Source of the DNA: Sulfurimonas sp.
GTDB taxonomy: Bacteria; Campylobacterota; Campylobacteria; Campylobacterales; Sulfurimonadaceae
Length of the DNA: 64,000 bases
Assembly (NCBI GenBank): GCA_028687935.1
Contig: JAQTZE010000007.1
Span: 62,001 to 126,000, forward strand
Reading direction: 5' to 3'
The position numbers and the translations under genes were made by a program. Below are positions 47,622 through 62,382 of this stretch, piece after piece. Within the stretch, counting starts at the first letter, position 1; the number at the start of each line of letters is the position of its first letter. Below the pieces are notes generated by a model that saw only the letters and a list, made by a program, of their open reading frames with translations, had not been told where the DNA came from and did no database searches.

Positions 47622-47999
47622 TTATTCAAAAAGTCCTAAAAGAAGCTCTTTCGTTTTCATATCTATCTTTTGAGCTTTGCCTTCAAAAGAGATATGCGCA
47701 AGCGTAATAAAAAGTTCAAAAATCTTTTTCTCTCCTTTGTAAATACTCTGCTTGAGTCTAAAAGAAGCCGCTCGCATCTCCAGTAAATCCGTTGTTATCT
47801 CAAGCATATCACCAAGTTTGGCACTTGCCATATACTCCGCTTCAATCTTTTTTGCCACAAAATGCCCATTTTCTAAAACAGGACTTAAATCCCGACTAAA
47901 AAAAGCCTCACTCCGCGCTCTTTCACAAAAATTGAGATAGACAGAATGATACACTACCCCACCTGTATCTGTATCTTCGTAATAAACTCGTATTTGCAC
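47622..47999 (-). CDS. ybgC: YbgC-family acyl-CoA thioesterase
   Basis: 125-residue hot-dog thioesterase; the signature YYEDTDTGGVVYHSVYLNFCERARSE contains the catalytic Asp. Linked in many bacteria to phospholipid/Tol-Pal functions. The start is GTG at 47,999, where relatives usually have ATG. The upstream region is the integrase of the island, so the native promoter and possibly the original start may have been replaced on integration. Confidence 0.85.
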   Translation of the reverse strand: MQIRVYYEDTDTGGVVYHSVYLNFCERARSEAFFSRDLSPVLENGHFVAKKIEAEYMASAKLGDMLEITTDLLEMRAASFRLKQSIYKGEKKIFELFITLAHISFEGKAQKIDMKTKELLLGLFE

Positions 48000-48032: not shown

Positions 48033-49211
48033 CTAAGAATTAGCCAATGTGTCAAAAATTGTGCCAAATTTCTCTAATTTCTGAAACCTTGTTGCTTCAT
48101 CTTCTTGGATAAACTTTGTGTATGTTGAAAGTGTAATTGAGACATCTTTATGACCTAAAGTTTTTGATACCCAAACTATATCAACACCTTGACTTATCAT
48201 CTGTGAAGCAAATGTATGTCTAAGATTATACAGAACTCTCTCTTTGATATTGTTTCGAGTGAGCAATCTTTTAAATGAAGCAGCAAGGGTATCGTGTGAA
48301 AAATATCTTTTGCCACTTCTTGTATAAAATAGATACTCTTTATCTCCAGTGAGCTTTTGTTGACTTAGTAACACTTCTAAAGTTTGAGGCAAGATATCCA
48401 CATATCGCATAGATGACATCGTTTTTGGTGTGCCATCTTTTCCAGCAACTCTTGTTTGCATTATTTTGATTTGCTTTTTATCAAAGAGTATATCTTGCCA
48501 TCTAAGAGCAACTGCTTCACCTGGTCTCATTCCTGTAAAAAGCATCAGTTTATAGAAGTTTTTATTGTGTTCAAAAAGTTGATTATCTTCTAAAATAAGC
48601 TTAATCTCTGCATTGTTAAAAGGCATCACATCCTCTTCTTCATCAAATAAAGAGTTTTGCTTTGATTTTTGTTTTGGTGCTTTTACTAATTGCATAGGAT
48701 TTTTAACGATTATTTCATTGATAAAAGCATCTTGCAAAATGTTGTAAAAGATTGAACGATACTTTTGAGCACTTGATGGTGTGAGAGTTGTAAGTAATCT
48801 ATTTTGCCAATCTTGTATATCCATCGGTTTTATAGCACTAATTTTTGTTTTACCAAAATATGGAACCACATAGTTTTTAAAAGCTGCCATTTTTCGCTCA
48901 TAAACATGAGGTTTAATATTTGGTTTATTAGCATTTATGCTTTTTATTCCAAACTCTTCAACTGTCATATCTTTTGGATCATCAAACTCCTCTTCTAAAG
49001 CAATATTTGCACCTGTAAGTCCAAGCATTAGCTCTGGAATAATCTCTTTTTTAATGATAAGTAAATTATCACTATTTGCTTTTAACGAAGTACTTCTTCG
49101 TTGTCTTTTATTATCGATGAAAAAATCCAAATTCCAATGACCACTTCGCTCAATAATCCTAAATCTAACATCTTGATAGATATATTTGACTGATTTTTGC
49201 TTTTTCATCAT
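48033..49211 (-). CDS. int: Tyrosine integrase
   Basis: 392 residues. N-terminal arm-binding-like and SAM-like core-binding domains (about 100-175), then the catalytic domain. Catalytic residues: Arg229 in FTGMRPGEAVALRW, a Lys near 263, Arg331 in LRHTFASQ, His354 in TLGHKD, and nucleophile Tyr364. The His of the HxxR motif is Tyr328 here, a variant that many active phage integrases share. It sits at the left boundary, transcribed toward ybgC, as expected for the element's own integrase. Confidence 0.93.
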   Translation of the reverse strand: MMKKQKSVKYIYQDVRFRIIERSGHWNLDFFIDNKRQRRSTSLKANSDNLLIIKKEIIPELMLGLTGANIALEEEFDDPKDMTVEEFGIKSINANKPNIKPHVYERKMAAFKNYVVPYFGKTKISAIKPMDIQDWQNRLLTTLTPSSAQKYRSIFYNILQDAFINEIIVKNPMQLVKAPKQKSKQNSLFDEEEDVMPFNNAEIKLILEDNQLFEHNKNFYKLMLFTGMRPGEAVALRWQDILFDKKQIKIMQTRVAGKDGTPKTMSSMRYVDILPQTLEVLLSQQKLTGDKEYLFYTRSGKRYFSHDTLAASFKRLLTRNNIKERVLYNLRHTFASQMISQGVDIVWVSKTLGHKDVSITLSTYTKFIQEDEATRFQKLEKFGTIFDTLANS

Positions 49212-49642: not shown

Positions 49643-51049
49643 TTACAAACCCCTATTTATGGAGTTATCTTGGCTATCTGGGTTATCTAGTAGCTCAAAG
49701 ACCAATTTATTGTTTTGTCGTGGAATTCTTGTAGCTTTCCAGTATTTATCTTTACCACTTTGAATGATTTTATTGGCTTTATCTTTGTTGTAACCAGCAT
49801 CAATTAGAGTGCTTAAAATATCACTGTATTTTGGTTTTTCATTGCATGAAGCAATAAACCTTATGATCTCTTCTTTGATTTCCAAATCTTCATTTGTCTC
49901 CATTGCATAATCCACATCAACTTTTGTAAGTGTATTGTCTTGATTGTATTTAAAGGCTATGTAGTCTGATGTGTTATTTCTATCTTTTATGGGGATGAGG
50001 ATATAGGTCTGCTTATCTTCATTTTTTCTAAGCTCGAATGCTAAAGCAACATCTTCAGCAAATGCACTACTGCCTGCAAATTCTGAGTTAAACTCTTTTT
50101 GAAGTTTGTTTTGGTGATGCAAAAAGATAATCGTAGCACCATTTTTTCTTAGTTTTTTTAGCATTTTCATAAGTTTTGTTACATCCTTATGGCTATTCCT
50201 ATCACCTACAATGAAATTTTTAATTGAGTCAAAAACAATCAAACAATCAGTTAAATCTTTTTTCATCAATTCATTAATAATTTCAGTAAGTTTTGTTTGC
50301 GTAAGCTCTACAAAATAATTAAGTCTATTGCCAAATTTTTCTTTTAAAAGATGAATATTTCTTGTTTTTATTGTAAGTTCTGAGTTGTCGCCATCAAGAT
50401 AAAAAACTCGTTTTATTTTCTCTTCACTTAAAAACATATTACATAAAGCAACTGATAACAATGATTTACCAGTGCCAGGACGTGCAACTATCATAACGAT
50501 ATCATTTTTAACTATGAAATTATCATAAAGATACTCAACTTTTTTGTTCTTAATTCTCTCAACATCCAAATCTAAAGAACTGATATAGGCTTCAAATTTT
50601 TCATCAAATGCCTTTAAATCTCTTATCTCTCCATTTACATCTTGTTCCTCTTTTAAAGACTGTAAATGTCCAATAAGGGTAAAATCTCCCTCCTTGATTT
50701 TCGCAGCTGTGATTAACATTTGTCTATCTAAACTATGATGTTTCACTATTTGTGCCATATCAACGATATTTGCTATTGGACTTTTTGCTAATACCTCAAT
50801 AACCGCCTGTTCTGTGATTTCTTTATTCTGCAATAAAATAAAATTCTCATCAATAGGTTTATCATCATTAAACAATTTGATAATCGCTTTAAAAATAGCT
50901 CCATTTTGTTTATGTATAAAATCTTTTTCATCTAAAATTTTTACAACTTTCCCGATATTTTCAGCACTTGCGAATTGCATCATAGAGCTTAAAAGCCCTT
51001 GCTCTATTGCAAGTAAGAAACTATAATCATTGTCTTGGGTATAATTCAT
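49643..51049 (-). CDS. Replicative helicase, DnaB N-domain plus RepA/RecA-type ATPase
   Basis: 468 residues. The first about 110 match the DnaB N-terminal helical domain (FLLAIEQGLLSSMMQFA, IFKAIIKLFNDDKPIDENFI). A RecA-fold motor then shows Walker A MIVARPGTGKS (187-196), Walker B CLIVFDSIKNF, and a sensor strand IIFLHHQNK; a winged-helix tail ends the protein. This resembles hexameric helicases of plasmids and satellites (RepA of RSF1010 type, GP4d). Probably drives replication of the excised element. Good AAGGAAA ribosome-binding site. Confidence 0.8.
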   Translation of the reverse strand: MNYTQDNDYSFLLAIEQGLLSSMMQFASAENIGKVVKILDEKDFIHKQNGAIFKAIIKLFNDDKPIDENFILLQNKEITEQAVIEVLAKSPIANIVDMAQIVKHHSLDRQMLITAAKIKEGDFTLIGHLQSLKEEQDVNGEIRDLKAFDEKFEAYISSLDLDVERIKNKKVEYLYDNFIVKNDIVMIVARPGTGKSLLSVALCNMFLSEEKIKRVFYLDGDNSELTIKTRNIHLLKEKFGNRLNYFVELTQTKLTEIINELMKKDLTDCLIVFDSIKNFIVGDRNSHKDVTKLMKMLKKLRKNGATIIFLHHQNKLQKEFNSEFAGSSAFAEDVALAFELRKNEDKQTYILIPIKDRNNTSDYIAFKYNQDNTLTKVDVDYAMETNEDLEIKEEIIRFIASCNEKPKYSDILSTLIDAGYNKDKANKIIQSGKDKYWKATRIPRQNNKLVFELLDNPDSQDNSINRGL

Positions 51050-51061
51050 CTGTTTGTTTCC

Positions 51062-51739
51062 TTATGCAACTTCGGATTCAAATACAAAAACAAGCTGAGA
51101 GTGGCCGCTTTCAGTTTGTTCTTTTTTCAAATTTAGCTTTACTAAATCATTAGTCCCAAAAACATCTTTGATACTCAAATCAAACTTTTTACAAAGCTCT
51201 TCAATGTCCTCTTTATCAAGCGAATTATCAAAATATCCATCTTCCCAGATAAATTTCAAAGCTTTTATAATTTGCTTTTTTGGATGCTTTTGTAGTTTTT
51301 CAAACTCCAAAACATCTTCTATGTTGCTATAAGTAGTGCTAATCTCATCATTAAAAGCGATTTTGATTTTTGAGATATCTATGTACTCTTTATAAGCTGG
51401 ATTTGAAGTAAGATTGATAAAAGTGTTTATCCATCTATCAATAATCCAAGCAACGGTTTTTTGACTTGAACATAGATTGCTAAAGAGTTTGTTTTGAGAT
51501 TTAATCGCTTTTTCATACATCTTTGTAGCTCTATTTGTAAGATATTCATCCACAATAGGTGCTACATCATCAACATATGAAGTTAAAAACATTTTAGATG
51601 TTTGTGTTTCAAAAAACTCTTTGGCACTATCTTTTGCCCAAGGTAGAATTGATTTAAAAATATTTATATCTTTGAATATCATTGCAGGATTGCTAATCTT
51701 TGGTGCAAGATATTCGACGGCTATCTGTTTTGAGTGCAT
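51062..51739 (-). CDS. Hypothetical protein upstream of the helicase
   Basis: 225 residues, largely helical, no signal peptide or recognised motif. An Asp/Glu-rich helical stretch near the C-terminus is followed by LVFVFESEVA. Perfect AAGGAGA ribosome-binding site. Position directly upstream of the helicase (12-nt gap) and divergent from the XRE regulator suggests a replication-initiation or loader role, which is an inference from location only. First gene of the leftward operon controlled from 51,740-51,882. Confidence 0.55.
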   Translation of the reverse strand: MHSKQIAVEYLAPKISNPAMIFKDINIFKSILPWAKDSAKEFFETQTSKMFLTSYVDDVAPIVDEYLTNRATKMYEKAIKSQNKLFSNLCSSQKTVAWIIDRWINTFINLTSNPAYKEYIDISKIKIAFNDEISTTYSNIEDVLEFEKLQKHPKKQIIKALKFIWEDGYFDNSLDKEDIEELCKKFDLSIKDVFGTNDLVKLNLKKEQTESGHSQLVFVFESEVA

Positions 51740-51753
51740 TTTTTCTCCTTTCT

Positions 51754-51769
51754 ATATCGTTTACGATAT
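51754..51769. promoter_or_regulatory. Palindrome in the divergent control region
   Basis: ATATCGT-TT-ACGATAT, perfect 7-bp arms, 15 nt upstream of the leftward hypothetical gene. A likely binding site for a dimeric regulator. Its sequence differs from the CTTAAG sites at 51,808-51,842. Confidence 0.5.
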
Positions 51770-51807
51770 TATTAGTATTTGAAACTTTATCATCTATAAA
51801 TTTAAAT

Positions 51808-51842
51808 ATACCTTAAGCTATCACTTATATACTTTAAGATAT
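51808..51842. promoter_or_regulatory. Two operator-like sites 21 bp apart
   Basis: ATACCTTAAGCTAT (51,808-51,821) and ATACTTTAAGATAT (51,829-51,842) are near-palindromic and repeat with 21-bp centre spacing, i.e. two helical turns on the same face. They lie 41-75 nt before the XRE gene start. Probable operators for that regulator, forming a lambda-like switch. Confidence 0.55.
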
Positions 51843-51882
51843 TATTAGAAATTGATTGAATATTGTTTATTTAGGAAAGAAT

Positions 51883-52614
51883 ATGTATTTAAAAGAATTT
51901 AGAGAGCAGACTGGCTTATCACAAAAAGAATTTGCTGAGAAACTAGAATTAACACAAGTTACAATTGCCCGATATGAAACAGATAAAATGAATCCTACAA
52001 GTGCAGTAATTCAAAAATATATTGATGTTTTTGCTGCAAATCCAAGTTATCTTTTTTTAGGCTTAGAGCCAAAATTTTTAACTTTTGAAGACAATAATTT
52101 GACTCAAGAAAACCATGAAGTATTGAAAGATTTAAATTTACTTTTGTCTCAAGATGAATTAAATCTTGAATTAAACAGTATTCTGATTAACAAAGTACTT
52201 GATAAATTTATTCACAATAAAGAAGAAAGCTCAACAGTTGAAAAATTACTCAAAGCTTTGAAACTCGAAGGACATATTCCAGTAAGACCATTTTTATTTT
52301 TATACTATATTTTCAGATATATTGCTGAAAATAAGGCTGAATTAGAAAATATTGAATCTTATAAAAAGTATATTGTTGATCTTGTAAGTAGATATAAAGT
52401 TTTTACGATTAAAAACAATCCAGCATTCACGAATAAAATCAAACAAGAATTTGAAGCAAATATTGAATTGAACTTTACCGAGAAGGAGTGTAAACTGTTG
52501 ATTACTCATCCTGAGGAAACCATTAAAAAATTGGAATCAAAAATGACTCCAATGATAGTGTTAGCACATCGTAAAATTGATGTTAAAACTCTATTTCCTC
52601 CATTTGAAAAATAA
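51883..52614 (+). CDS. XRE/Cro-CI family transcriptional regulator
   Basis: About 243 residues. The N-terminal HTH (YLKEFREQTGLSQKEFAEKLELTQVTIARYETDKMNPTS) is a textbook Cro/CI domain. The C-terminal 180 residues are helical and lack the Ser/Lys cleavage residues of LexA-type repressors. The ATG at 51,883 has an AGGAAAG site, better than the TTG-type start nine codons earlier. Divergent from the replication/integration operon, so probably its repressor. Confidence 0.85.
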   Translation: MYLKEFREQTGLSQKEFAEKLELTQVTIARYETDKMNPTSAVIQKYIDVFAANPSYLFLGLEPKFLTFEDNNLTQENHEVLKDLNLLLSQDELNLELNSILINKVLDKFIHNKEESSTVEKLLKALKLEGHIPVRPFLFLYYIFRYIAENKAELENIESYKKYIVDLVSRYKVFTIKNNPAFTNKIKQEFEANIELNFTEKECKLLITHPEETIKKLESKMTPMIVLAHRKIDVKTLFPPFEK

Positions 52615-52617
52615 CTC

Positions 52618-52785
52618 TTAGTTAATATTTTTCTTTACAAAATGATAAAAAGCTGTATAGCTAATTTTTGTACCGGAATTTATTTTCGAGTTAATAATTT
52701 TCCATGTTGATGTTATTGAAGCTCCGCAATCAATTAACTCTCTGATTTCTCTTCTATACTTTTCCATTCTACTTTTTGCTGCCAT
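52618..52785 (-). CDS. 55-residue TraK-like DNA-binding protein
   Basis: Complete short gene with ATG at 52,785, AGGAGC ribosome-binding site and TAA at 52,618. It reads MAAKSRMEKYRREIRELIDC, then GASITSTWKIINSK, then KISYTAFYHFVKKNI. The G-x-S-x(3)-W-x(2)-I and ISYT-F--FV pattern matches TraK-type HTH domains of conjugative or mobilizable elements as I remember them. It also parallels the C-terminus of the 52,879 protein. The gene fills most of a gap that otherwise looks empty. Confidence 0.55.
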   Translation of the reverse strand: MAAKSRMEKYRREIRELIDCGASITSTWKIINSKINSGTKISYTAFYHFVKKNIN

Positions 52786-52878
52786 TTGTTGCTCCTATAT
52801 TGAATCTTTACCCATATTCATAATTTCAGATTTACCAAAATTATGAATACCTTGTAAATAAAATCAAACGAGGTGAAT

Positions 52879-53400
52879 ATGGAACAAAAAAACAACATTG
52901 TTGACAGTGGAACTCTCTCAAGTTTAGAGTTTCACACTAAGCTCTCCAAAGAGCAGAGAAAAACACTTATAAACTGGTTCAATAAACAAAACATCGAATT
53001 TCAAATACTGATATTTGATGAGCAAAAAAATCAGTTTTTTAAACTTAAAAATGAGGGAATTGATAAAAAGCTTTTATCTTTGGCTTCATATTTACTTGCT
53101 ATTAGGCACTTTTACGACAAAGAGCAGCTTTTAAAATCAAAGAATAAATCTCAGACTTTAAGTGAGCTTGGAGGTATCGCTAAAATAGAGCGAATAAAGC
53201 TTAAAAAAGAGAAACCAAAACAAAAGCTTCAAATGCTTTTATCGATGCATTCTGTTATTTTAGGACTGCATGATGATGGGTATAGCTTAAGAGATATAAA
53301 ACAACATTTACAAAGTAAATATAAAAAAACTATCTCACATACTTATCTATCCCAATACATAAACGAGCACATCATAAAAAAGGATGAGAAAAATGTATAA
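52879..53400 (+). CDS. Protein with C-terminal TraK-like HTH
   Basis: 173 residues. N-terminal helical part, a basic linker (IERIKLKKEKPKQKLQ), and a C-terminal HTH (LHDDGYSLRDIKQHLQS, then KTISHTYLSQYINEHI) like that of the 55-residue neighbour. I chose the ATG at 52,879, spaced properly from the CGAGG site; a GTG six bases earlier is too close. First of three plus-strand genes. Likely a DNA-binding factor of the element; mobilization is a guess. Confidence 0.55.
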   Translation: MEQKNNIVDSGTLSSLEFHTKLSKEQRKTLINWFNKQNIEFQILIFDEQKNQFFKLKNEGIDKKLLSLASYLLAIRHFYDKEQLLKSKNKSQTLSELGGIAKIERIKLKKEKPKQKLQMLLSMHSVILGLHDDGYSLRDIKQHLQSKYKKTISHTYLSQYINEHIIKKDEKNV

Positions 53401-53800
53401 CGAAACAACCTTTATAATGATGCAAATAGTTGTATTTTTTAGTGGAGTGATTGCTGGAGCTGGAATATTTTACTTTCTACAAGATAGATTTGCTCTTGGT
53501 ATTCAAAAGCTTCTTATGAACTACTCATTAGAGTTTCAAACCCAATTAGCTCAAAATGTTGATGAGATTGAGGAGCAATTTGCTGAGTATAAAAAATATC
53601 TCTTGAAAATGGCTAGTGAAAATGCAAAGGAGCAAAAAGATATTCAAGATAGTTTCAAACTTATAGATAATAGCCTCTCAAAGTTTCATACAGAGATAAA
53701 GTCAACTCATTATGTGAGACAATCTTTAGAAGATGAAATTACAAAACTAAAAAATATTATCAAACGACAAAACAAACACAATAAACAAAAGGAGCAATAA
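53393..53800 (+). CDS. Membrane-anchored coiled-coil protein
   Basis: 135 residues with one N-terminal TM helix (MMQIVVFFSGVIAGAGIFYFL) and a long heptad-rich cytoplasmic helix (QNVDEIEEQFAEYKKYLLKM onward) ending in a basic tail. The ATG overlaps the previous stop by 8 nt, so it is coupled. No recognisable family. Layout recalls small accessory membrane proteins of mobilization or replication modules. Confidence 0.55.
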   Translation: MYNETTFIMMQIVVFFSGVIAGAGIFYFLQDRFALGIQKLLMNYSLEFQTQLAQNVDEIEEQFAEYKKYLLKMASENAKEQKDIQDSFKLIDNSLSKFHTEIKSTHYVRQSLEDEITKLKNIIKRQNKHNKQKEQ

Positions 53801-54148
53801 ATGGCATTTTTATTCGATAAATTTAAAAATATGTTCAAAGAGAAAACTGGTGAGGAATTCACAAAAAATGAAAAAGAGTATGTGATAATTTATTTTGCAA
53901 ATAGCAATCCAAAGTCATCTTCTAAAACAATATTCTATAGTGCAATGCGTTGCTTAAGAGCATTTTATCCATTACCTGCAATTAAAGCTATGGTACAAAG
54001 TGAAGTAAAAGAAGCATTCAAAAAAGAGCAAGCACCAAAGCGTATTAAAAAGCTTTATAAAGAATTTGCGGAAATAATTTTTAACGCAGCTATGGAAAAA
54101 AATATTAGCAATACTATAAAGCGAAATGAAAAATCTAAAAGTCTATAA
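53801..54148 (+). CDS. Hypothetical protein of the plus-strand triplet
   Basis: 115 residues, basic and helical, with KTGEEFTKNEKEYVIIYFANSNPKSSSKTIFYS near the N-terminus and no membrane segment. The start follows the previous stop without a gap and has a GGAG site. Its last 6 nt overlap the convergent beta-lactamase gene. Function unknown. Confidence 0.5.
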   Translation: MAFLFDKFKNMFKEKTGEEFTKNEKEYVIIYFANSNPKSSSKTIFYSAMRCLRAFYPLPAIKAMVQSEVKEAFKKEQAPKRIKKLYKEFAEIIFNAAMEKNISNTIKRNEKSKSL

Positions 54149-54949
54149 ATCTTTCAACAATCCTAATGCGAATAAGCAATCTTTAGTTAAGCTTATTCGT
54201 TTTGGGGCATCATTTGCACCTTTCATATCGATATTTAAAGCAAAAATATAACTGCCCTCAGCATTTTCAACCCATCCTACAAACCAACCTATTCCACTAT
54301 CCGGGGCATTTTGCCAACCAGTTTTTGCATAGAGTTTATAATCATCAGCACTTTCAAGCAGTAAAATCTGTTTTACATCTCTTTGAGTCTCTTTGGAGAT
54401 AGGAAGTTGTTCCCCGACTAATTTTTTCAAAAACTCCACCTGCTCAAGAGCACTAATTTTAAGCGGACCATCGAGCCAAAAACGATCTACTACCTCTCCA
54501 GTATCAGCGTTTCCATACTCAAAAATTTTTAAATAATGTTTCATTCTTTCTAAGCCGATTCTTCTAGCGAGCTCTTGATAAATTGGTACATTTGAAATCG
54601 CTATTGCTTTTCGTAGTCCCATATCTTCTTTCCAGCTTGCAATAAATGGATTTTTTGGTCCAAGATAAGGGAGATGTTCATCTACACTTTTGACTGCTTT
54701 TGTCTCTAATCCTATGAGTGAATTTGCGATTTTAAAAGTCGATGCAGGTGTATATCTTCTTTGTGCTCTTGCTTGATCATGGATGATTAGCTTCTCTTTT
54801 TGCATATCATAAAGCACAAAGGTTGCGTTAGTATCTGCTTTGCTAAAAACCTCTTCTATCTTTTGACTGAGCTCATTTGCAAAAAGAGTTGTCGTGGTGG
54901 AGATTATAAATATAAATGAGAAAATAAGACTATGCATAAATGGTTTCAT
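54143..54949 (-). CDS. Class D (OXA-type) beta-lactamase
   Basis: 268 residues with a signal peptide (to about TLFA). All class D motifs are present: PAS70-T-F-K73 (nucleophile and carbamylated Lys), S119-N-V, Y145-G-N, W158-L-D-G-P and K209-T-G. An active periplasmic serine beta-lactamase is expected. The spectrum cannot be read from motifs; FEYGNAD and KTGW are shared by narrow and broad types. AAGGAA ribosome-binding site. The gene lies as cargo between the accessory triplet and a structured non-coding gap. Confidence 0.93.
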   Translation of the reverse strand: MKPFMHSLIFSFIFIISTTTTLFANELSQKIEEVFSKADTNATFVLYDMQKEKLIIHDQARAQRRYTPASTFKIANSLIGLETKAVKSVDEHLPYLGPKNPFIASWKEDMGLRKAIAISNVPIYQELARRIGLERMKHYLKIFEYGNADTGEVVDRFWLDGPLKISALEQVEFLKKLVGEQLPISKETQRDVKQILLLESADDYKLYAKTGWQNAPDSGIGWFVGWVENAEGSYIFALNIDMKGANDAPKRISLTKDCLFALGLLKDL

Positions 54950-54969
54950 TTGAAAATTCCTTACTATTA

Positions 54970-54984
54970 TGATAAATTTTATCA
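54970..54984. promoter_or_regulatory. Palindrome before the beta-lactamase gene
   Basis: TGATAAA-T-TTTATCA, perfect 7-bp arms, 20 nt upstream of the beta-lactamase ATG. Could be an operator or overlap the core promoter. Confidence 0.4.
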
Positions 54985-54990
54985 GAAAAA

Positions 54991-55039
54991 TACAAAGCTT
55001 TACTATAAATGGCTGTCAATTCTTTTGTAAAGCTTTGTA
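54991..55039. repeat. 13-bp perfect inverted repeat, TACAAAGCTTTAC / GTAAAGCTTTGTA
   Basis: Arms 54,991-55,003 and 55,027-55,039 with a 23-nt spacer. Each arm contains an AAAGCTTT palindrome, so four half-sites occur. May be a recombination site, a transcript hairpin upstream of the beta-lactamase, or the scar of a cassette end. Confidence 0.55.
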
Positions 55040-55511
55040 AAAAAAGGTGTAAAATCAAGCTCTCCTCTTTTTGTAAATTATCCCTTCAAAATCCCCTAAA
55101 ATAAAGTATTTTTCTTACCATCTAAAAAAACAAGGAAACGGGGAGCAAAAAATCTTATCGCAAATCTTTTTTTCTACTAACGGTTATACTTGACAAATTT
55201 GGTGTTAGAATTTTCTTTTTTATAACCCTTACCAAAAGTAAGCATTGATTCAAACAATGACTAAAGTTGAGCTAGGTGGAGGAGTTTGCCAGAATCTTTT
55301 TTTTCTAGACTATTTAAAAACTGTGAAGCAAAATGTAAAGTTTTCAGATACTTTTCAAAACTGTATAGCCACCTTGGTGGTAGGAGAAATGCCTAAATTT
55401 AGTTTTATTAGATCTATGAAAAATCTAATCTTTGTTTGATGCTTTCAAAGTGAAAAAAAGTAGAAGGACTCAACACATACCTGTAAATAGAGGCAGGAAA
55501 ATTATAGATAA
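55040..55511. other. Non-coding stretch between beta-lactamase and second recombinase
   Basis: About 470 nt without a convincing gene. It holds poly-T runs, a TTGACA hexamer near 55,190, a small hairpin CCACC-TT-GGTGG near 55,369-55,380, and CCTG...CAGG near 55,480. A 64-codon frame at 55,245-55,439 lacks a ribosome-binding site. Could encode a small RNA or recombination sites for the following recombinase; nothing is certain. Confidence 0.4.
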
Positions 55512-56453
55512 ATGGAAAAAACAAAAATGAGAGGAAGTGTATATTATCAAACAGCAGTACTTACAAAGCTCATATTCTTTGAAGGTGCAAAAAAATCTGA
55601 TAGAGTAAATCCAAATCATGAGCATTATGGATGTGTATCATCTTTTAAAACGATGGAGAGTTATAGAAATGTTTGGAATAACTTTTTTAACTACATCAAA
55701 GAGCATTTTAAACTAAAAAACTGTGAACTTATAACTGATGAGCATATCAAAAGCTATATTGAGTATAAGATAGAATACTATCCTTCTAAACAGTATTTAG
55801 AAAAAATCACATCTGCTCTTGGAAAGCTAGAGATTGCACTTAATCGCTACTCAAAAGAGAAATATCAATTTCCAATTATCTATGATTTTAAAATAAGACA
55901 AGAACTTTTAAACAATGCTAGAGATTTAAAACTTGTGGCAAACAACTATCATAACAGGGTTTATGATAATCCATATCTTATCATAGAAAATCTATCCAAT
56001 CAAAAACACCAACTAGCTGCAACCATACAGCTTGAAGGTGGTGCACGAAGTGAAGGAGTGACACTTATCAAAGAGGAGCAACTAAATGCTATAAAAATTG
56101 ATGAGATAACGAGCAAAAGTATTGGAGTACTTGAGACTAAAGAAAAAGGTGGAAAAGTTGGCGATGTATTTGTATCAATCAAAACTTATGAAACTTTGCA
56201 AAACTTCTTTTTACAAAATGACACTTCATATTTTAAAATCTCTTACCAAGAGTACATTGATGATATTAAAACAACTTGCCAAAAGCTCAACACTCCTCAT
56301 CATGGCTCACATGGTTTTAGATGGACTTTTGCACAAAATCGTGTAAGGGAGTATCAAAATCATGGCTATACTTATGAACAAGCCTTACAAGGTGTTAGCT
56401 GGGAGATGAAACACTATAGAGCAAGTATAACCGAGCACTATCTTGGACACTAA
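55512..56453 (+). CDS. Second, divergent tyrosine recombinase
   Basis: 313 residues. N-terminal SAM-like core-binding domain (SYRNVWNNFFNYIKEHF), then a compact catalytic domain: Arg179 in EGGARSEG, Lys at 210-214 in TKEKGGK, His267 and Arg270 in SHGFRW, His301 in EMKHYRAS and nucleophile Tyr310 only three residues from the C-terminus. All catalytic residues are present. It shows little likeness to the 48,033 integrase. It may act as a resolvase or invertase of the element rather than its main integrase. Confidence 0.75.
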   Translation: MEKTKMRGSVYYQTAVLTKLIFFEGAKKSDRVNPNHEHYGCVSSFKTMESYRNVWNNFFNYIKEHFKLKNCELITDEHIKSYIEYKIEYYPSKQYLEKITSALGKLEIALNRYSKEKYQFPIIYDFKIRQELLNNARDLKLVANNYHNRVYDNPYLIIENLSNQKHQLAATIQLEGGARSEGVTLIKEEQLNAIKIDEITSKSIGVLETKEKGGKVGDVFVSIKTYETLQNFFLQNDTSYFKISYQEYIDDIKTTCQKLNTPHHGSHGFRWTFAQNRVREYQNHGYTYEQALQGVSWEMKHYRASITEHYLGH

Positions 56454-56483
56454 AAAATAAACCATTACAAAGGAAAAACAAAC

Positions 56484-56828
56484 ATGCAACCACTGATTAT
56501 CAAAGAGTATTTAACGGCTATCAAACTAGATGAAGAAAACAACCTTCTATTTGCATATGACATCAAAGATAACATCATAGATGAGCAAAGTGAAGGGATT
56601 TTAAGTGAAGTAAATGAGCTAATGTACCAAAAAATTGCATCATATTTTCATATTAAGCCTGAGGATTATGGTGTTTCGATTGGCAATAAAGTAACCAAAG
56701 AAGATGAAATTCAGGAATTTTTGGAAATTGCCAAAATCATAAAAGAAAGAGTTCTTGATAAAAAAGAACCTATCAAAATGGTAACAGAGGCTGAAATGTT
56801 GGAATATTTAGAGAAAAGATTGAAGTGA
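56484..56828 (+). CDS. Small acidic protein downstream of the second recombinase
   Basis: 114 residues, Glu/Asp/Lys-rich, no TM segment: IIKEYLTAIKLDEENNLLFAY at the start and TEAEMLEYLEKRLK at the end. Good AAAGGAAA ribosome-binding site, 30 nt after the recombinase. Probably co-expressed with it as an accessory factor. Not recognised. Confidence 0.5.
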   Translation: MQPLIIKEYLTAIKLDEENNLLFAYDIKDNIIDEQSEGILSEVNELMYQKIASYFHIKPEDYGVSIGNKVTKEDEIQEFLEIAKIIKERVLDKKEPIKMVTEAEMLEYLEKRLK

Positions 56829-56888
56829 TTTTTTTGCTAAAACAGTGATATTTGAGCTAAATTTTGGTAAAATTTTTCTTGAATATCA

Positions 56889-56928
56889 AGCCCTAAGACG
56901 GGAGCGACTCTGCTAGTTCTTGAGGGCT
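56889..56928. repeat. Stem-loop between the 56,484 gene and hsdR
   Basis: AGCCCTAAGA pairs with TCTTGAGGGCT (10 bp, one bulged G) around a GC-rich loop. No U-tract follows on either strand, so it is not a standard terminator. It lies 9 nt past the hsdR stop. Confidence 0.5.
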
Positions 56929-56936
56929 GAAAAAAT

Positions 56937-59900
56937 TTATCCTACTATATCATTCGCTATCATCTCGGCTTGTTTTAGTACTGTTTCTGTAGCAAGAGCC
57001 TGCATATCTGGTGGATAGCCAAATTGTCTAAGCACTCTTTTTACTGCAATTTTTAGTTTTGCTCGTACACTCTCTTTTATTGTCCAGTCAATACTTGCAT
57101 TTTCTCGCACTTTTTGAGTAAGCACCACGGCAAGTTCCCGCAACACCTCTTTACTCATAAGCTCTTTTGCGCTTTCATTGTTTGCAACTGCTGTGTAAAA
57201 AGCATACTCAAAATCAGTAAGTCCCAACTCTTTTGGCTCTTTATCCATCGATTTTATGTCTTTACTTATATTAATAAGCTCATCTATCACTTCAACAGCT
57301 GTAATAATTTTGTTGTGGTATTTTTTGATAGAGTTTTCAAGCATCTCCATCAAAGACTTACTTTGTATTAGATTTGTTTTTGATCTTGTTTTTATCTCAT
57401 CATTTAAAAGCTTTTTAAGTACTTCAAGAGCTATATTTTTATGCTTCATATTTTTTACTTCAAGTAAAAATTCTTCTGAAAGTATTGAAATATCAGGCTT
57501 TTTAATACCGCTTGCATCAAATATATCTATCACTTGCTCTGTTACGAGAGCTTGGTCGATTACCTGTCGTATGGTTGTTTCTATCTCTTCATCACTTCTC
57601 GTTTCTTTACTTTCAAATTTTACAAGTCTTGCTTTTACTGCTTGGAAAAATGCGATTTCATCTTTTGCATCCATAGCCTGATCGTGAGGTATGGCAATAG
57701 CAAATGCCTGTGAAAGTGCCGTTACTTCCTCAATATATCTTTTTTTACCATCTTCAAGCCCCAAAATATGTTCTTCTGCTTCAAGTATCAAAGATAGCTT
57801 TCCTCTTGTATCAAGCTCAAAGTATTGCTCATAGGCAAATCCATGATACATTTGAGAAACCACTTCTAACTTTTCAAGCATAAGCGCTACTGCTTGCTCT
57901 TGAGCAAGTGCAGGATCTCCTTTCCCTCCACTATCACTATAAAAAGAAAGAGCTTTTTTCAAGTCACTCGCAATCCCTAGATAATCAACTACAAGACCAC
58001 CTGGTTTATCTTTGTAAACCCTATTTACCCTTGCAATCGCTTGCATAAGGTTGTGTCCTTTCATGGGCTTATCTATGTAAAGTGTATGCATAGATGGAGC
58101 ATCAAATCCTGTAAGCCACATATCCCTTACGATTACAAGTTTTAGCTCATCATTTACATCTTTCATACGATTTGCTAAATCACGACGCTGTTGCTTAGAG
58201 GTATGATGTTTTGCCATAAGAGCTCCATCGGAACTGCTTGCCGTCATGATCACTTTTATAACGCCTTTATCCAAATCATCACTATGCCAAGCTGGTCTTA
58301 AAGCGATTATTTCATTATAAAGCTCTACTGCGATTCTTCTACTCATAGAGACAATCATCCCTTTACCGTCAAACACCTCTTGACGATTTTCAAAGTGAGC
58401 TACTATATCAGCGGCTACCTCTTTTATTCTGTTCTTGCTTCCAATGAGAGCTTCAAGTTTTGTCCATTTTGATTTGGCTTTTTGCGTTTGATCCATCTCT
58501 TCATAAGACAAATCATCGTCAAGCTCTTTAACTAATTCTTTTCCCTCATCACTTAGGTTGATTTTTGCAAGTCGGCTTTCATAGTAGATTTTTACCGTCG
58601 CACCGTCTTCCACTGCTTGAGAAATATCATAAATATCTACATACTCCCCAAATACTGCTGGTGTGTTGACATCTGTACTCTCAATTGGTGTTCCTGTAAA
58701 TCCTAGATAAGTAGCATTTGGTAAAGCATCTCTTAAATATTTTGCAAAACCATACACTACTTTTTTTCCTATGACATTGCCATTTTCGTCTTTGTCATCT
58801 ACTGTTTTAGGTTTAAATCCATACTGTGTACGATGTGCTTCATCGGCTATTACTACAATATTTCTTCTGTCTGAGAGCATATCATAGACATTTCCCTCCT
58901 CAGGCTGAAACTTTTGAATAGTCGTAAATATCACTCCACCGCTTGCAACTTTGAGCTTTTGTTTTAAATCTTCTCTATCTTCTATTTGCATCGGTTCTTG
59001 TCTTAGCAGATTGCCACAGCTTGCAAAGGTATCAAAAAGCTGATCGTCCAAATCATTTCTATCAGTGATGACAAGAACGGTAGGATTATTGAGTGCTAGG
59101 ACTATTTTACCTGTATAAAAGACCATTGAGAGTGATTTTCCGCTTCCTTGTGTATGCCAAACAACACCACCTTTTTTATCTCCGCCCTCACTACTTGCGA
59201 TTAAGGTTCTTTGGACTGCTTTATTTACTGCGTAGTATTGGTGATACGCTGCTAATTTTTTAACCGTTTCAATAGTTACGATGCCGTTTTTATCCTCTTT
59301 TTTTGATTTCTCAAAAACTATAAAACTTCGCACCAAATCAAGTAATACAAGAGGATTTAACATACCTTTTATAAGTGTTTCTATCTGAGGAATGAGCCTT
59401 GAAGCTTCACTTTCCCCATCGCTTGTCTTCCAAGCCATATAACGACTAAGTCCAGCTGAGATAGTTCCAGCTTTTGCCTCTATACCGTCACTTATCACAC
59501 AAAAAGCATTGTAAGTAAAAAGCGATGGGATGAGCGATTTGTAAGTGCCGATTTGATTGTGGGCTGATTTTATCGTAGCATTTTCATCAACTGCATTTTT
59601 TAGCTCAATCACCACCAAAGGTAAGCCATTTACAAAAATGATGATATCTGGTCGTTTGTTATGTCCGTTTTCAATGATAGTAAATTGATTTGCCACTACA
59701 AAATCATTATTACTAATATCTTCAAAATCCACTAGATGCACTATCTCCCCACGAGTGATGCCATCTCTTTGCACATCAACTTTTACACCCTCTACTAAAA
59801 GCTTGTGAAAGGTTTCATTGTCGCTTAAGAGTTCACTTGATTTGATTCGCTCAATCTGTTTAATAGCATCTTCTATAGCACTCTGTGGTAAAGATGGATT

Positions 59901-60050
59901 GATTTTCTCTACAGCATTTATAAGTCTACCTTTGAGCAATACCTCTTCATGGTTTCTCTCAAGTTCTGGAGCATAGATGTAGTTGTAACCGAGCTTTTCA
60001 AAAAGCTCTATCGCAAAAAGTTCTATTTCATTTTCTGTAATTTTTGTCAT
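56937..60050 (-). CDS. hsdR: Type I restriction enzyme, R (motor/nuclease) subunit
   Basis: 1,037 residues. The N-terminal nuclease has the PD-(D/E)xK series RPDIIIF with Asp135 and VIELK with Glu149/Lys151. The SF2 translocase has Walker A TQGSGKS (300-306), DEAH (403-406), GFTGTPIE and helicase motifs to LTGFDAPSMHTLYIDK. The C-terminal helical part would contact HsdM/HsdS. No hsdM or hsdS is downstream, so they must lie beyond the right edge, upstream in the same operon. The start overlaps the HNH gene stop (ATGA). Confidence 0.93.
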   Translation of the reverse strand: MTKITENEIELFAIELFEKLGYNYIYAPELERNHEEVLLKGRLINAVEKINPSLPQSAIEDAIKQIERIKSSELLSDNETFHKLLVEGVKVDVQRDGITRGEIVHLVDFEDISNNDFVVANQFTIIENGHNKRPDIIIFVNGLPLVVIELKNAVDENATIKSAHNQIGTYKSLIPSLFTYNAFCVISDGIEAKAGTISAGLSRYMAWKTSDGESEASRLIPQIETLIKGMLNPLVLLDLVRSFIVFEKSKKEDKNGIVTIETVKKLAAYHQYYAVNKAVQRTLIASSEGGDKKGGVVWHTQGSGKSLSMVFYTGKIVLALNNPTVLVITDRNDLDDQLFDTFASCGNLLRQEPMQIEDREDLKQKLKVASGGVIFTTIQKFQPEEGNVYDMLSDRRNIVVIADEAHRTQYGFKPKTVDDKDENGNVIGKKVVYGFAKYLRDALPNATYLGFTGTPIESTDVNTPAVFGEYVDIYDISQAVEDGATVKIYYESRLAKINLSDEGKELVKELDDDLSYEEMDQTQKAKSKWTKLEALIGSKNRIKEVAADIVAHFENRQEVFDGKGMIVSMSRRIAVELYNEIIALRPAWHSDDLDKGVIKVIMTASSSDGALMAKHHTSKQQRRDLANRMKDVNDELKLVIVRDMWLTGFDAPSMHTLYIDKPMKGHNLMQAIARVNRVYKDKPGGLVVDYLGIASDLKKALSFYSDSGGKGDPALAQEQAVALMLEKLEVVSQMYHGFAYEQYFELDTRGKLSLILEAEEHILGLEDGKKRYIEEVTALSQAFAIAIPHDQAMDAKDEIAFFQAVKARLVKFESKETRSDEEIETTIRQVIDQALVTEQVIDIFDASGIKKPDISILSEEFLLEVKNMKHKNIALEVLKKLLNDEIKTRSKTNLIQSKSLMEMLENSIKKYHNKIITAVEVIDELINISKDIKSMDKEPKELGLTDFEYAFYTAVANNESAKELMSKEVLRELAVVLTQKVRENASIDWTIKESVRAKLKIAVKRVLRQFGYPPDMQALATETVLKQAEMIANDIVG

Positions 60051-60886
60051 TGTGAATATCCTCCATTACAATACCATTGATTTTGTGACAATGCTTGATA
60101 CATTGCAGTTTCCCAAGAATTTTTATGCCTACTTGCAAAACTTACAAATTTTTTATGTAATTCTTGTTGTATTTGTACAGTAGTTGAATTGAATAAAATA
60201 AACTCTTCCCTCAAATCTGCTATTGCATTTGCAGCCTCTATAGAAAATCTTCTAGCTAGTTTATAGTTATTAAAATGCGACTCTATCCTATCTTTGTCCA
60301 CTGAACTCAAGCTTACAGGGCAATTTATATAGAATTCTATTGATACTGGAGAAGTTTGTAATACTCTTGCAAACAACCATTGTACAGTTGTAAAATTATC
60401 GTAATAAGGATGTAGAGTCTGTGCATTTTGTGTAGTTGCATAACTTGCCAATTTTCCAGTATTACAATCTTTACAACTTGCTACTAAATTGTAAGGCAAT
60501 ACTGTAAATGCAGGGAATTCAGCTTTAGGTAAATAATGATCTAGTGTTGAGACTTGACCAATACCACAAAATGGGCATCTGCCTAATGGAGCCAAAGATA
60601 ATAGTTTATTATAAATTTTTCTACCTCTTTTATTTTTAACCATATTATTTTCATACAATGTTTTCATATCACCTTTTAGGATACTACCATATACTGTCAT
60701 ATGAGTTGAAGCTGGTAATAAATATAAATTAGCGATGTTCGCATTTGCATCATAACCTACAGATTGAGTATTTATGAAATTTGCAATTGATTTAAAATTA
60801 TTTCTTTTAACTCTATCGTTAAAACTAGAATAACATGCTACATAAGTTTTAATTGGTAAAAGGTTTGGTTTTGGAATCACTTTCAT
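60047..60886 (-). CDS. HNH endonuclease, PtuB-like
   Basis: 279 residues. Central HNH module: CPFC zinc knuckle (104-107), TLDHYLPK with Asp116/His117, PYNLVASCKDCN with Asn133 and second Cys pair 138-141. Flanking regions are helical with no other domain. It starts one base into the ATPase stop (TAATG) and overlaps hsdR (ATGA). An AAA ATPase followed by an HNH nuclease is the Septu (PtuA-PtuB) arrangement. Identity as Septu is inferred from gene pair and motifs. Confidence 0.8.
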   Translation of the reverse strand: MKVIPKPNLLPIKTYVACYSSFNDRVKRNNFKSIANFINTQSVGYDANANIANLYLLPASTHMTVYGSILKGDMKTLYENNMVKNKRGRKIYNKLLSLAPLGRCPFCGIGQVSTLDHYLPKAEFPAFTVLPYNLVASCKDCNTGKLASYATTQNAQTLHPYYDNFTTVQWLFARVLQTSPVSIEFYINCPVSLSSVDKDRIESHFNNYKLARRFSIEAANAIADLREEFILFNSTTVQIQQELHKKFVSFASRHKNSWETAMYQALSQNQWYCNGGYSQ

Positions 60887-62382
60887 TACAACGATTCTCC
60901 AGAATTATTTAATAACGCTCTTAATAATAACTTTGCTTCAATTCCTAACTGATCATTATATTTTTGAATAATCTGTTCATAACTTTTTCCACTTACTACA
61001 TCTTCATTAAGCAACTTATAAAAACCAGATTCATTAACCTCCAAACCGAATACTTCACGAGTCAACTTTCCAATAGTTTCACCAAAAGTTTCACTTTCAA
61101 ATCGTTCTGCGTTTGCTTCTAATCCAAATCTACTAAGTTTCCATATACAACTTTTAGGTATTTCTTGAGCTATTACGGGAGAATGTGTCGCTATGATTGC
61201 TACAGCATTTCTATTTATCAATAAATCAGATAAAGCTCTAATAAATGCAGATAAAAGAGGAGGATGAAGATGAGCCTCAGGCTCATCTAATAATACCAAC
61301 GTCTTTTCTTCAATTTTTTCTACCAACCTTGTTATTGTAAGTAAAACAATGGAATGACCTGAACTTAATCTTTTATACAATTGTTTAGTTCTTCGTTCAT
61401 TTAAAGTACTTTCTATTAATTGAGTAATATTTATTTCATTGAAAAGAGGATCTGACTCTAAACTTCTTACTGCATTTAGCCATTTTTCTTTTTTCCCAAC
61501 ACTAAAACAATGATTTATACTATTAAAAAACTCCTGTGCTAATTCATCATGATTTTTTATTGTCTCTACATCTTCTTTTTTCAAACCTATATATGAATAA
61601 CTAGGATATTCTCTTTCCTTATAAGGTTTAAATGGATCAAATGCACTGTAAGATACAGACATTACTTTTGAAAAAAATTCTACAGAATTTCCAAATACAT
61701 CAACTACCTGCTGAAATTCTCCTTGAGCATCTTGAGAACTAATAAAACTTTTAACCATATTATTTAATAAATGTGTTTTTCCTACACCATTTCTACCTAT
61801 TAACACATGTACATTTGTTGGTGGATTAGATTCTGGTTCTACATTAAATGATAGTTGATAACCTGCCTCTGTTGCTGTTTGAATAGTTCTATAAGAAAAA
61901 TTATACTGTGTTAATATTGCACCACCATCTAAAATTCTTCTATACTGCCCATTTAAGGTAACCAAACTTGTATCCCTTAATAACGATGTTTGTGTTACAG
62001 ATTCTTGTAATGCCCTTGATTGAAGTTCTTGGTCAAATACAATATCTTTAATTTTTATCAAAAACAATTCTTTTAATTGTGGATTCAAATCCTGAATAAT
62101 TGAATAATATTCATCACTTTGTCCTAAAGAAAAATATCTATCATCCAACTGTTCAAATTCTTCTTCTAATTCAATTCTTTCATCTGTTGTCTGTCCAAAA
62201 TTCGCAATTTTCACATATCCCAAATCATGTTTAATTCCATTTTCATCAAAAAGTGTTATTTGATATAATGTACGATAACTAAAATCATTCCAGTTATCTA
62301 GTATCAAGTAAACTGAAAGTCTGCAACTTTCTGGAATTCTAAAGCCTCTTTGTTTTTTATAAAAAATTAACTGCATTTTCAT
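60886..62382 (-). CDS. AAA/ABC-type ATPase, PtuA-like
   Basis: 498 residues. The first 190 form a non-ATPase beta-rich region. Walker A GRNGVGKT (196-203), an ABC-like signature LSSGHS (339-344), Walker B TLVLLDEPEAHLHP and switch His in ATHSP (400) follow. No TOPRIM domain, which excludes OLD/Gabija GajA, and no SMC coiled coil. It pairs with the HNH gene. Start is the ATG at 62,382 or 62,376; the latter has better spacing from GGAAA. Confidence 0.82.
   Translation of the reverse strand: MKMQLIFYKKQRGFRIPESCRLSVYLILDNWNDFSYRTLYQITLFDENGIKHDLGYVKIANFGQTTDERIELEEEFEQLDDRYFSLGQSDEYYSIIQDLNPQLKELFLIKIKDIVFDQELQSRALQESVTQTSLLRDTSLVTLNGQYRRILDGGAILTQYNFSYRTIQTATEAGYQLSFNVEPESNPPTNVHVLIGRNGVGKTHLLNNMVKSFISSQDAQGEFQQVVDVFGNSVEFFSKVMSVSYSAFDPFKPYKEREYPSYSYIGLKKEDVETIKNHDELAQEFFNSINHCFSVGKKEKWLNAVRSLESDPLFNEINITQLIESTLNERRTKQLYKRLSSGHSIVLLTITRLVEKIEEKTLVLLDEPEAHLHPPLLSAFIRALSDLLINRNAVAIIATHSPVIAQEIPKSCIWKLSRFGLEANAERFESETFGETIGKLTREVFGLEVNESGFYKLLNEDVVSGKSYEQIIQKYNDQLGIEAKLLLRALLNNSGESL

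What the first reader, a model, noticed from the sequence alone, without database searches (positions are those of the whole stretch)
54143..55511. OXA beta-lactamase beside structured DNA and a second recombinase
A complete class D enzyme is bracketed on one side by a 13-bp perfect inverted repeat and a long non-coding stretch that ends at a second tyrosine recombinase. The pattern could represent a cassette captured at a site used by that recombinase. If so, the AAAGCTTT-containing repeat would be its recognition site.
Basis: inference. Interest (0 to 1): 0.55.

Follow-up and report, generated by a model that had tools for sequence, protein, structure and literature searches.

The report
Recombinase module with unknown structured RNA
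A beta-lactamase gene sits as a passenger beside the control region of an unusual recombinase in a mobile DNA island of an environmental bacterium, and that control region is a conserved unit with repeated binding-site-like DNA and a folded RNA that had no match in the RNA family library searched.

Summary
In detail: a complete class D beta-lactamase gene (54143-54949, minus), a perfect 13-bp inverted repeat (54991-55003 / 55027-55039), then a non-coding stretch up to a divergent tyrosine recombinase (conserved start 55527). Comparison of 62 distinct recombinase loci changes the reading. The non-coding stretch belongs to the recombinase, not to the beta-lactamase: it holds four TGT-type direct repeats about 11 bp apart, a promoter-like stretch and a structured RNA that ends just before the recombinase. 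In 30 related loci the RNA ends in an H-type pseudoknot with strong compensatory change; Rfam has no match. A close relative has nothing at that place, another has an AbiE-like pair, so the gene is a passenger in a variable slot of a 22.7-kb defence-gene island. No recombination site marks its far end, so cassette capture is not shown. Inverted repeats at the same place in a few relatives keep 'recombinase site' open. What the RNA does is unknown.

The parts
47977..47999 (.). left copy of the 23-bp direct repeat (att) that bounds the whole island; the other copy lies 22.7 kb on, beyond the window (L061:15688-15710)
   Evidence: exact repeat on the joined contig
48033..49211 (-). first tyrosine recombinase, integrase of the island
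   Evidence: Pfam Phage_integrase 87.5 bits
52873..53400 (+). F1: helical protein with C-terminal HTH-like part, first gene of the upstream module
   Evidence: profile finds F1 in 42 of 62 loci; AF2 model pLDDT 84.7, no PDB fold match at E<=0.001
53384..53800 (+). F14: small protein with N-terminal membrane segment and coiled coil (by eye)
53801..54148 (+). F8: small protein, last gene before the variable slot; its 3' end overlaps the beta-lactamase 3' end
54143..54949 (-). class D beta-lactamase gene, passenger in the slot between F8 and the array
   Evidence: absent from the slot in L083, replaced by an AbiE-like pair in L084
54991..55003 (+). left arm of the inverted repeat, in 62 loci found only in the two that carry the beta-lactamase
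55014..55053 (+). array of four direct TGTNNN repeats (spacing 12, 10, 12); contains the right arm of the inverted repeat (55027-55039)
   Evidence: strict form in 34 of 62 loci, 0-1 loci per round in 10 shuffle rounds
55134..55143 (+). GGAAACGGGG box, similar boxes by eye in many loci
   Evidence: position; listings
55190..55211 (+). promoter-like stretch TTGACA...TTAGAAT; its TTGACA is the reverse complement of the first array unit TGTCAA
   Evidence: position; by eye
55218..55500 (+). structured RNA (type A), with hairpins 55228-55242 and 55243-55259 and the 3' motif GGACTCAACACATACCTG...CAGG (55466-55497); transcript ends are inferred
   Evidence: alignment of 10 type-A loci: 35 consensus pairs, 6 with changes on both sides
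55527..56453 (+). second, divergent tyrosine recombinase (REC); listed ORF begins at 55512
56484..56828 (+). small ORF directly after REC
56849..56932 (+). conserved hairpin element after the small ORF, also nearly unchanged in L019 although REC there is only 60% identical
56937..62382 (-). start of the defence cargo: type I restriction subunit R and a PDC-M01B / PtuA-like pair
   Evidence: PADLOC models

Best explanation
The non-coding stretch is the control and probable recombination region of a conserved mobile-element module made of an HTH-like protein (F1), a structured RNA and an active-looking divergent tyrosine recombinase (REC). The four TGT repeats, together with a half-site in the promoter, are most likely bound by REC (or by F1), so that the site at which the module acts also switches the promoter that makes the RNA and REC. 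The RNA is probably cut from or acts within that transcript to control or assist REC. The beta-lactamase gene is a passenger that entered the cargo slot next to this region. Shown: module, array, RNA covariation, slot with and without the gene. Inferred: who binds the array, that REC recombines there, transcription, and the role of the RNA.
For: 62 distinct REC loci. The RNA 3' motif matches a pattern in 55 of 62 and, more loosely, by eye in 5 more (L005, L009, L014, L028, L112); L090 and L116 lack it. Strict array in 34 of 62 loci against 0-1 in shuffles; 10 such arrays elsewhere in 816 kb of context. Pseudoknot: 90.5% of cells paired, 8 of 10 pairs with changes on both sides, covariation 0.375 against 0.177 shuffled and at most 0.107 when slid. 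RNA model R1 hits 20 of 398 genomes of the order; REC is in the 3-kb locus in 28 of 30 fetched loci, several of them two hits at one place, and in one more REC stands behind an AbiE-like pair. Catalytic residues invariant in 21 of 21. REC model resembles integron integrase 2a3v and XerH. Slot: L083 empty, L084 AbiE-like pair, L001/L002 beta-lactamase. Of 10 plasmid records fetched with REC relatives, 8 have 440-880 bp without a listed gene upstream; F1-like proteins lie nearby in several.
Against: No expression, binding or recombination data. R1 does not detect the window's own RNA (type A); types A and B are linked only by the 3' motif and position. Folding of the window stretch alone is no better than shuffles (z -0.23). 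A 64-aa ORF overlaps the RNA in L001, L002 and L084, though cut to 50 aa in L083 and absent in L004, L007, L088. 28 of 62 loci fail the strict array pattern, and 28 of 34 array loci have no inverted repeat of score 10. R1 locus L170 has no REC on its contig piece. The plasmid gene table is incomplete, so gene-free gaps there are not certain. No rearrangement at the site was observed.
Confidence: 0.55

Rival explanations
1. Integron-like capture: REC inserts gene cassettes at a core site next to the array, with the array acting as extra binding sites as in attI, and the beta-lactamase gene is such a cassette, read away from the recombinase as integron cassettes are.
For: Right half CTGTCAAYTCTTTTGTAAAG kept and left half different between L083/L084, L001/L002 and L004; core-like inverted repeats with 5-8 bp spacers in L083, L084, L019, L113; best PDB hit is an integron integrase; attI1 is described as two inverted plus two further binding sites (PMC10500605, passages seen).
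Against: No site at the far end of the gene; about 30 bp of the presumed old left half are gone; in L084 the insertion lies outside a core-like repeat that is kept; ends of shared cargo blocks show no common motif by eye; no integron integrase model hit.
Confidence: 0.12
2. The array is only an operator for F1 or another regulator, and REC acts at some other site.
For: F1 is HTH-like and lies upstream on the same strand in 32 of 62 loci; recombinase-fold repressors such as MrpR bind repeated elements (PMC10516654, abstract).
Against: Array, RNA and REC stay together where F1 was not found in the listed context (L008, L009) or lies on the other side of REC (L092, L101); no other array was seen in the island.
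Confidence: 0.25
3. The RNA is simply a cis-acting leader that controls translation of REC, with the pseudoknot close to the start codon.
For: In 53 of 55 loci the 3' motif starts 42-117 nt before the REC start; no terminator was seen after it by eye.
Against: In L107, L113 and L181 an intact pseudoknot is separated from REC by a gene pair whose second member is AbiEii.
Confidence: 0.3
4. The inverted repeat is a chance or promoter feature of the beta-lactamase 5' flank.
For: Left arm only with the gene; the 74% relative in G121 has a loosely similar stretch at that place, 8 of 13 by eye.
Against: Perfect match to array units, unchanged in both carriers; 0 of 60 and 0 of 20 shuffles as good.
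Confidence: 0.3

Closest known systems
Integron (IntI, attI, attC)
   Same: tyrosine recombinase with an upstream site region of repeats, passenger gene read away from it; REC model's best PDB hit is an integron integrase
   Different: no attC-like site at the passenger's end, no cassette array shown, no integron integrase model match, structured RNA present
XerH/difH single-recombinase system of Campylobacterota
   Same: site near the recombinase gene (PMC5357621, passages seen); fold close to XerH
   Different: no sequence match of the REC profile to any PDB chain up to E 0.1; here in islands and plasmids, with direct-repeat array and RNA
ColE1 cer site with Rcd RNA
   Same: a resolution site that also encodes a small RNA (PMC5357621, passage seen)
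   Different: Rcd is 70 nt and works with XerCD; here the RNA is longer, pseudoknotted in type B and paired with its own recombinase
IS110 recombinase with bridge RNA
   Same: non-coding RNA encoded beside a recombinase (PMC11208158, start of abstract in listing)
   Different: IS110 enzymes are not tyrosine integrases of this fold (recalled); no guide-target pairing was demonstrated here
Tn4430 TnpI and its resolution site (recalled, nothing read)
   Same: tyrosine recombinase with inverted core plus direct repeats upstream of its own gene
   Different: no RNA recalled; not tested here
MrpR/YopR recombinase-fold repressor
   Same: same fold group and a repeated DNA element
   Different: MrpR has lost recombinase function (abstract); REC keeps the six catalytic residues

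Membership tests
Class D beta-lactamase | score above curated model cut-off and active-site motifs | tested here: met
   289.2 bits against 250; STFK, YGN, KTG by eye
Tyrosine recombinase | R-K-H-R-H-Y catalytic residues and catalytic fold | tested here: met
   invariant in 21 of 21; fold hits
Integron | integron-type integrase | tested here: not met
   TIGR02249 not among matches of REC nor among families matched by the 21 members at E<=0.01
Integron | attC-like site at the end of each inserted gene | tested here: not met
   none seen at the beta-lactamase 3' end; hairpin element after REC occurs with few genes
Integron | attI-like site with inverted core and direct repeats | tested here: inconclusive
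   direct repeats in 34 of 62, inverted repeat of score 10 in 6 of those 34
Xer/dif dimer resolution | acts at a dif-like site in a chromosome or plasmid | not testable with these tools
   needs a recombination assay
Bridge-RNA recombinase | RNA loops complementary to target and donor DNA | not tested
   no mapped target or donor junction for REC
Known Rfam RNA | match to a covariance model | tested here: not met
   0 matches at E<=1 in window 50000-60000; in 9 relatives one hit at 26.3 bits against a gathering score of 58

The most novel reading that the evidence does not exclude
The pseudoknotted RNA is a required partner of the tyrosine recombinase, shaping or directing strand exchange at the repeat array: an RNA-assisted tyrosine recombinase in islands of Campylobacterota, with distant plasmid relatives in other phyla that keep a long gene-free stretch in the same place.
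Probability: 0.12. Interest if true: 0.92.

Novelty: new variant of a known kind. Interest (0 to 1): 0.6.

Why it matters
Tyrosine recombinases are among the best-studied DNA enzymes, and I recall none that travels with a large folded RNA. If the RNA controls or assists REC, it would be a new layer of control on mobile defence islands, or a new RNA-protein recombination machine. The locus also shows how a beta-lactamase gene can enter such an island next to defence genes without being a classical cassette.

Tried and rejected
Cassette array after REC: several cargo blocks are shared between loci at different distances from REC, but their ends show no common motif by eye, so I dropped it. The hairpin element after the small ORF was tested as an attC analogue: 38 of 200 family genomes pass E 0.01, but long matches are only in G000, G095 and G105; G042 has a fragment at a contig end and G188 a degraded copy after another ORF; the rest are short weak matches. 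REC in viral contigs: 38 pattern hits, none confirmed; in phage records: no match at E 1e-5. F1 fold search: nothing at E<=0.001. Guide-target pairing of the RNA was only looked at by eye and gave nothing consistent. Paper searches listed nothing that I recognised as this module from titles and abstract starts; the library holds open-access papers only.

Rows dropped and limits: A1 holds 21 REC sequences, the window's and 20 of the other 29 loci L002-L030 (L004, L007, L011, L013, L017, L021, L022, L023, L026 left out). A2 holds 30 of 31 type-B pseudoknot loci chosen by eye (L114 left out for a long linker); A3 holds the 16 compact ones of 31; A5/A6 hold 10 type-A loci (L082, cut short, and L092 left out, and the more distant type-A loci such as L008-L011 were not used). 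'Further pair types' in A2 and A3 did not exceed shuffles (242/500 and 495/500), and 'pairs with a change on both sides' in A3 only weakly (53/500). In A3 the middle hairpin is poorly paired (58%). Regions for the plasmid repeat scan were chosen after reading the sequences. E-values of F1 hits are for a set of about 20 proteins; three of the nine hits are weak (0.002-0.009).

Full report
What is there. The window lies in a genome whose genus-mates in the search include contigs labelled Sulfurimonas (equal contig lengths; inference). From 47977 to 70709 on the contig lies one integrative island: a 23-bp exact direct repeat bounds it, the integrase at 48033-49211 stands at its left end, and a second, similar element follows at once. 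Its cargo right of the second recombinase is defence genes by PADLOC models: a type I restriction system, a Septu-like pair, HamA/HamB and a weak, partial Argonaute-like match.

The beta-lactamase. It is a complete class D enzyme gene. Matches to it occur in 40 of 200 family genomes including the window's own, but beyond that own gene only G095 (91%) and G121 (74%) are close. In G095 it sits at the same place of the same module; in G121 it lies on a 5.9-kb contig beside an arsR-family gene, and REC was not found on that contig. Compared with L083, which has the same module at about 90% nucleotide identity, the window has 873 bp between the aligned blocks at this place (54140-55012) where L083 has 26 bp. 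L084 has an AbiE-like pair there, L004 three small ORFs, L026 and L120 other genes. So the gene is a passenger in a slot that takes various genes.

The inverted repeat. The right arm is part of the direct-repeat array; the left arm occurs only in the two carriers of the beta-lactamase (2 of 62 loci; right arm in 4 of 62). The full repeat was in 1 of 60 genomes searched, the window's own (G095 was not among the 60). With two mismatches allowed the window has 8 matches to an arm against 3.2 expected; one of them, 54046-54058, lies on the far side of the beta-lactamase, but inside the F8 coding region and also in L083. At the array start, inverted repeats of score 10 or more occur in 6 of 34 strict-array loci (L001, L002, L083, L084, L019, L113) against 0.35 expected, with spacers of 5-8 bp in four and 23 bp in the two carriers. 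In REC relatives on plasmids of other phyla, inverted repeats with 10-18 bp arms lie in the gene-free stretch before REC in most of those scanned; a CGCTATGTA / TACATAGCG pair is shared by Vibrio, Aeromonas and Citrobacter plasmids (regions picked after reading; pAFAEC shows none above its shuffles).

The array. A strict pattern of four TGT units 10-13 bp apart is found in 34 of 62 loci and in 0 or 1 loci per round of 10 shuffle rounds. The unit differs by subfamily (TGTAAA, TGTTTA, TGTCCA; TTTCAT-like in others, by eye), and a matching half-site in the opposite sense lies just upstream of the -10-like box in many loci (by eye). Outside this place such arrays are rare: 10 in 816 kb of context on both strands. 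This is what one expects of a site whose binding protein also controls the promoter, as reported for integrase genes whose att site overlaps the promoter (PMC2951348, abstract).

The RNA. Between promoter and REC lies a conserved structured sequence. In 30 type-B loci its end is an H-type pseudoknot with compensatory changes; the whole type-B RNA has a second possible pseudoknot whose pairs hardly vary and so are untested. The window has the type-A form: 10 such loci give a consensus of 35 pairs, 6 with changes on both sides, and a conserved terminal hairpin. Both types end in a GA..GACTYAAC motif plus hairpin or pseudoknot before REC; 55 of 62 loci match by pattern, in 53 of them 42-117 nt before the REC start. 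A covariance model of type B finds 20 of 398 genomes of the order, nearly always with REC beside it (28 of 30 loci; L157 with REC behind an AbiE-like pair; L170 without REC on the piece fetched). It does not find the window's RNA. Rfam has no match. Against: plain folding of the window stretch is no better than shuffles, and a 64-aa ORF overlaps it in three near relatives, though not beyond.

REC. It is below Pfam's cut-offs; 8 of 21 members give weak XerA-like and 6 of 21 weak XerD-like matches. The six catalytic residues are invariant. The AF2 model (pLDDT 89.3, pTM 0.58) is closest to the integron integrase 2a3v and to XerH, with recombinase-fold repressors lower in the list. REC matches occur in 45 of 200 family genomes at E<=0.001, the window's own included, in 64 loci of the named collection, 58 of them labelled Campylobacterota or Epsilonproteobacteria groups (Woesearchaeota and Rhodobacterales labels at 91-95% identity look like misbinned contigs), and in 21 plasmid records. 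None was confirmed in phages or viral contigs.

Plasmid relatives. I fetched 10 of 21 records. pAFAEC carries REC with the RNA (R1 45 bits) in a 609-bp gap. Seven others (pGLOV01, paDPRO, p1J502, Aeromonas p1, pTRACA63, pSRC8, a Citrobacter plasmid) have 444-879 bp without listed genes before REC or before a short ORF and REC; pSulSP and pCORI-2 do not. PLSDB's gene table is incomplete, so these gaps are provisional. F1-like proteins lie beside REC in several (E from 7e-17 to 3e-5 in six, weaker in three). In pGLOV01 the end of the stretch can be drawn as a pseudoknot of the same form (by eye). This suggests, without proving, that HTH protein, RNA-like stretch and REC are an old unit.

Reading. 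The safest statement is that the non-coding stretch is the conserved site-and-RNA region of the recombinase module and that the beta-lactamase is a passenger. What REC does there (resolution, excision, inversion, capture) and what the RNA does are open.

Noticed in passing
L061:15722-19163 (contig beyond the window): A second integrative element of the same type follows the first in tandem, starting next to the second copy of the 23-bp att sequence.
   Followed up: partly
window 56484-56932; L019, L002, L082, L083, L084: Small ORF plus 85-bp hairpin element directly after REC, nearly identical between loci whose REC differs by 40%.
   Followed up: partly
L201:2100-2160: A degraded copy of the 85-bp hairpin follows a different ORF (71 aa) that resembles an ORF near the right end of the window's island.
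   Followed up: no
L107, L113, L181, L084: AbiEii-containing gene pairs are recurrent cargo: between the RNA pseudoknot and REC in three loci, and in the beta-lactamase slot in L084.
   Followed up: partly
L204, L205, L208: Plasmids of Vibrio, Aeromonas and Citrobacter share an inverted repeat CGCTATGTA...TACATAGCG in the gene-free stretch before REC.
   Followed up: no
L082, L084, L116, L121, L127: Module contigs filed under unrelated taxa (Woesearchaeota, Rhodobacterales, Lutibacter, Gracilibacteria) may be misbinned.
   Followed up: no
L147 (plasmid pAFAEC): REC lies among many small hypothetical and regulator-like genes on a 140-kb Aliarcobacter plasmid.
   Followed up: no
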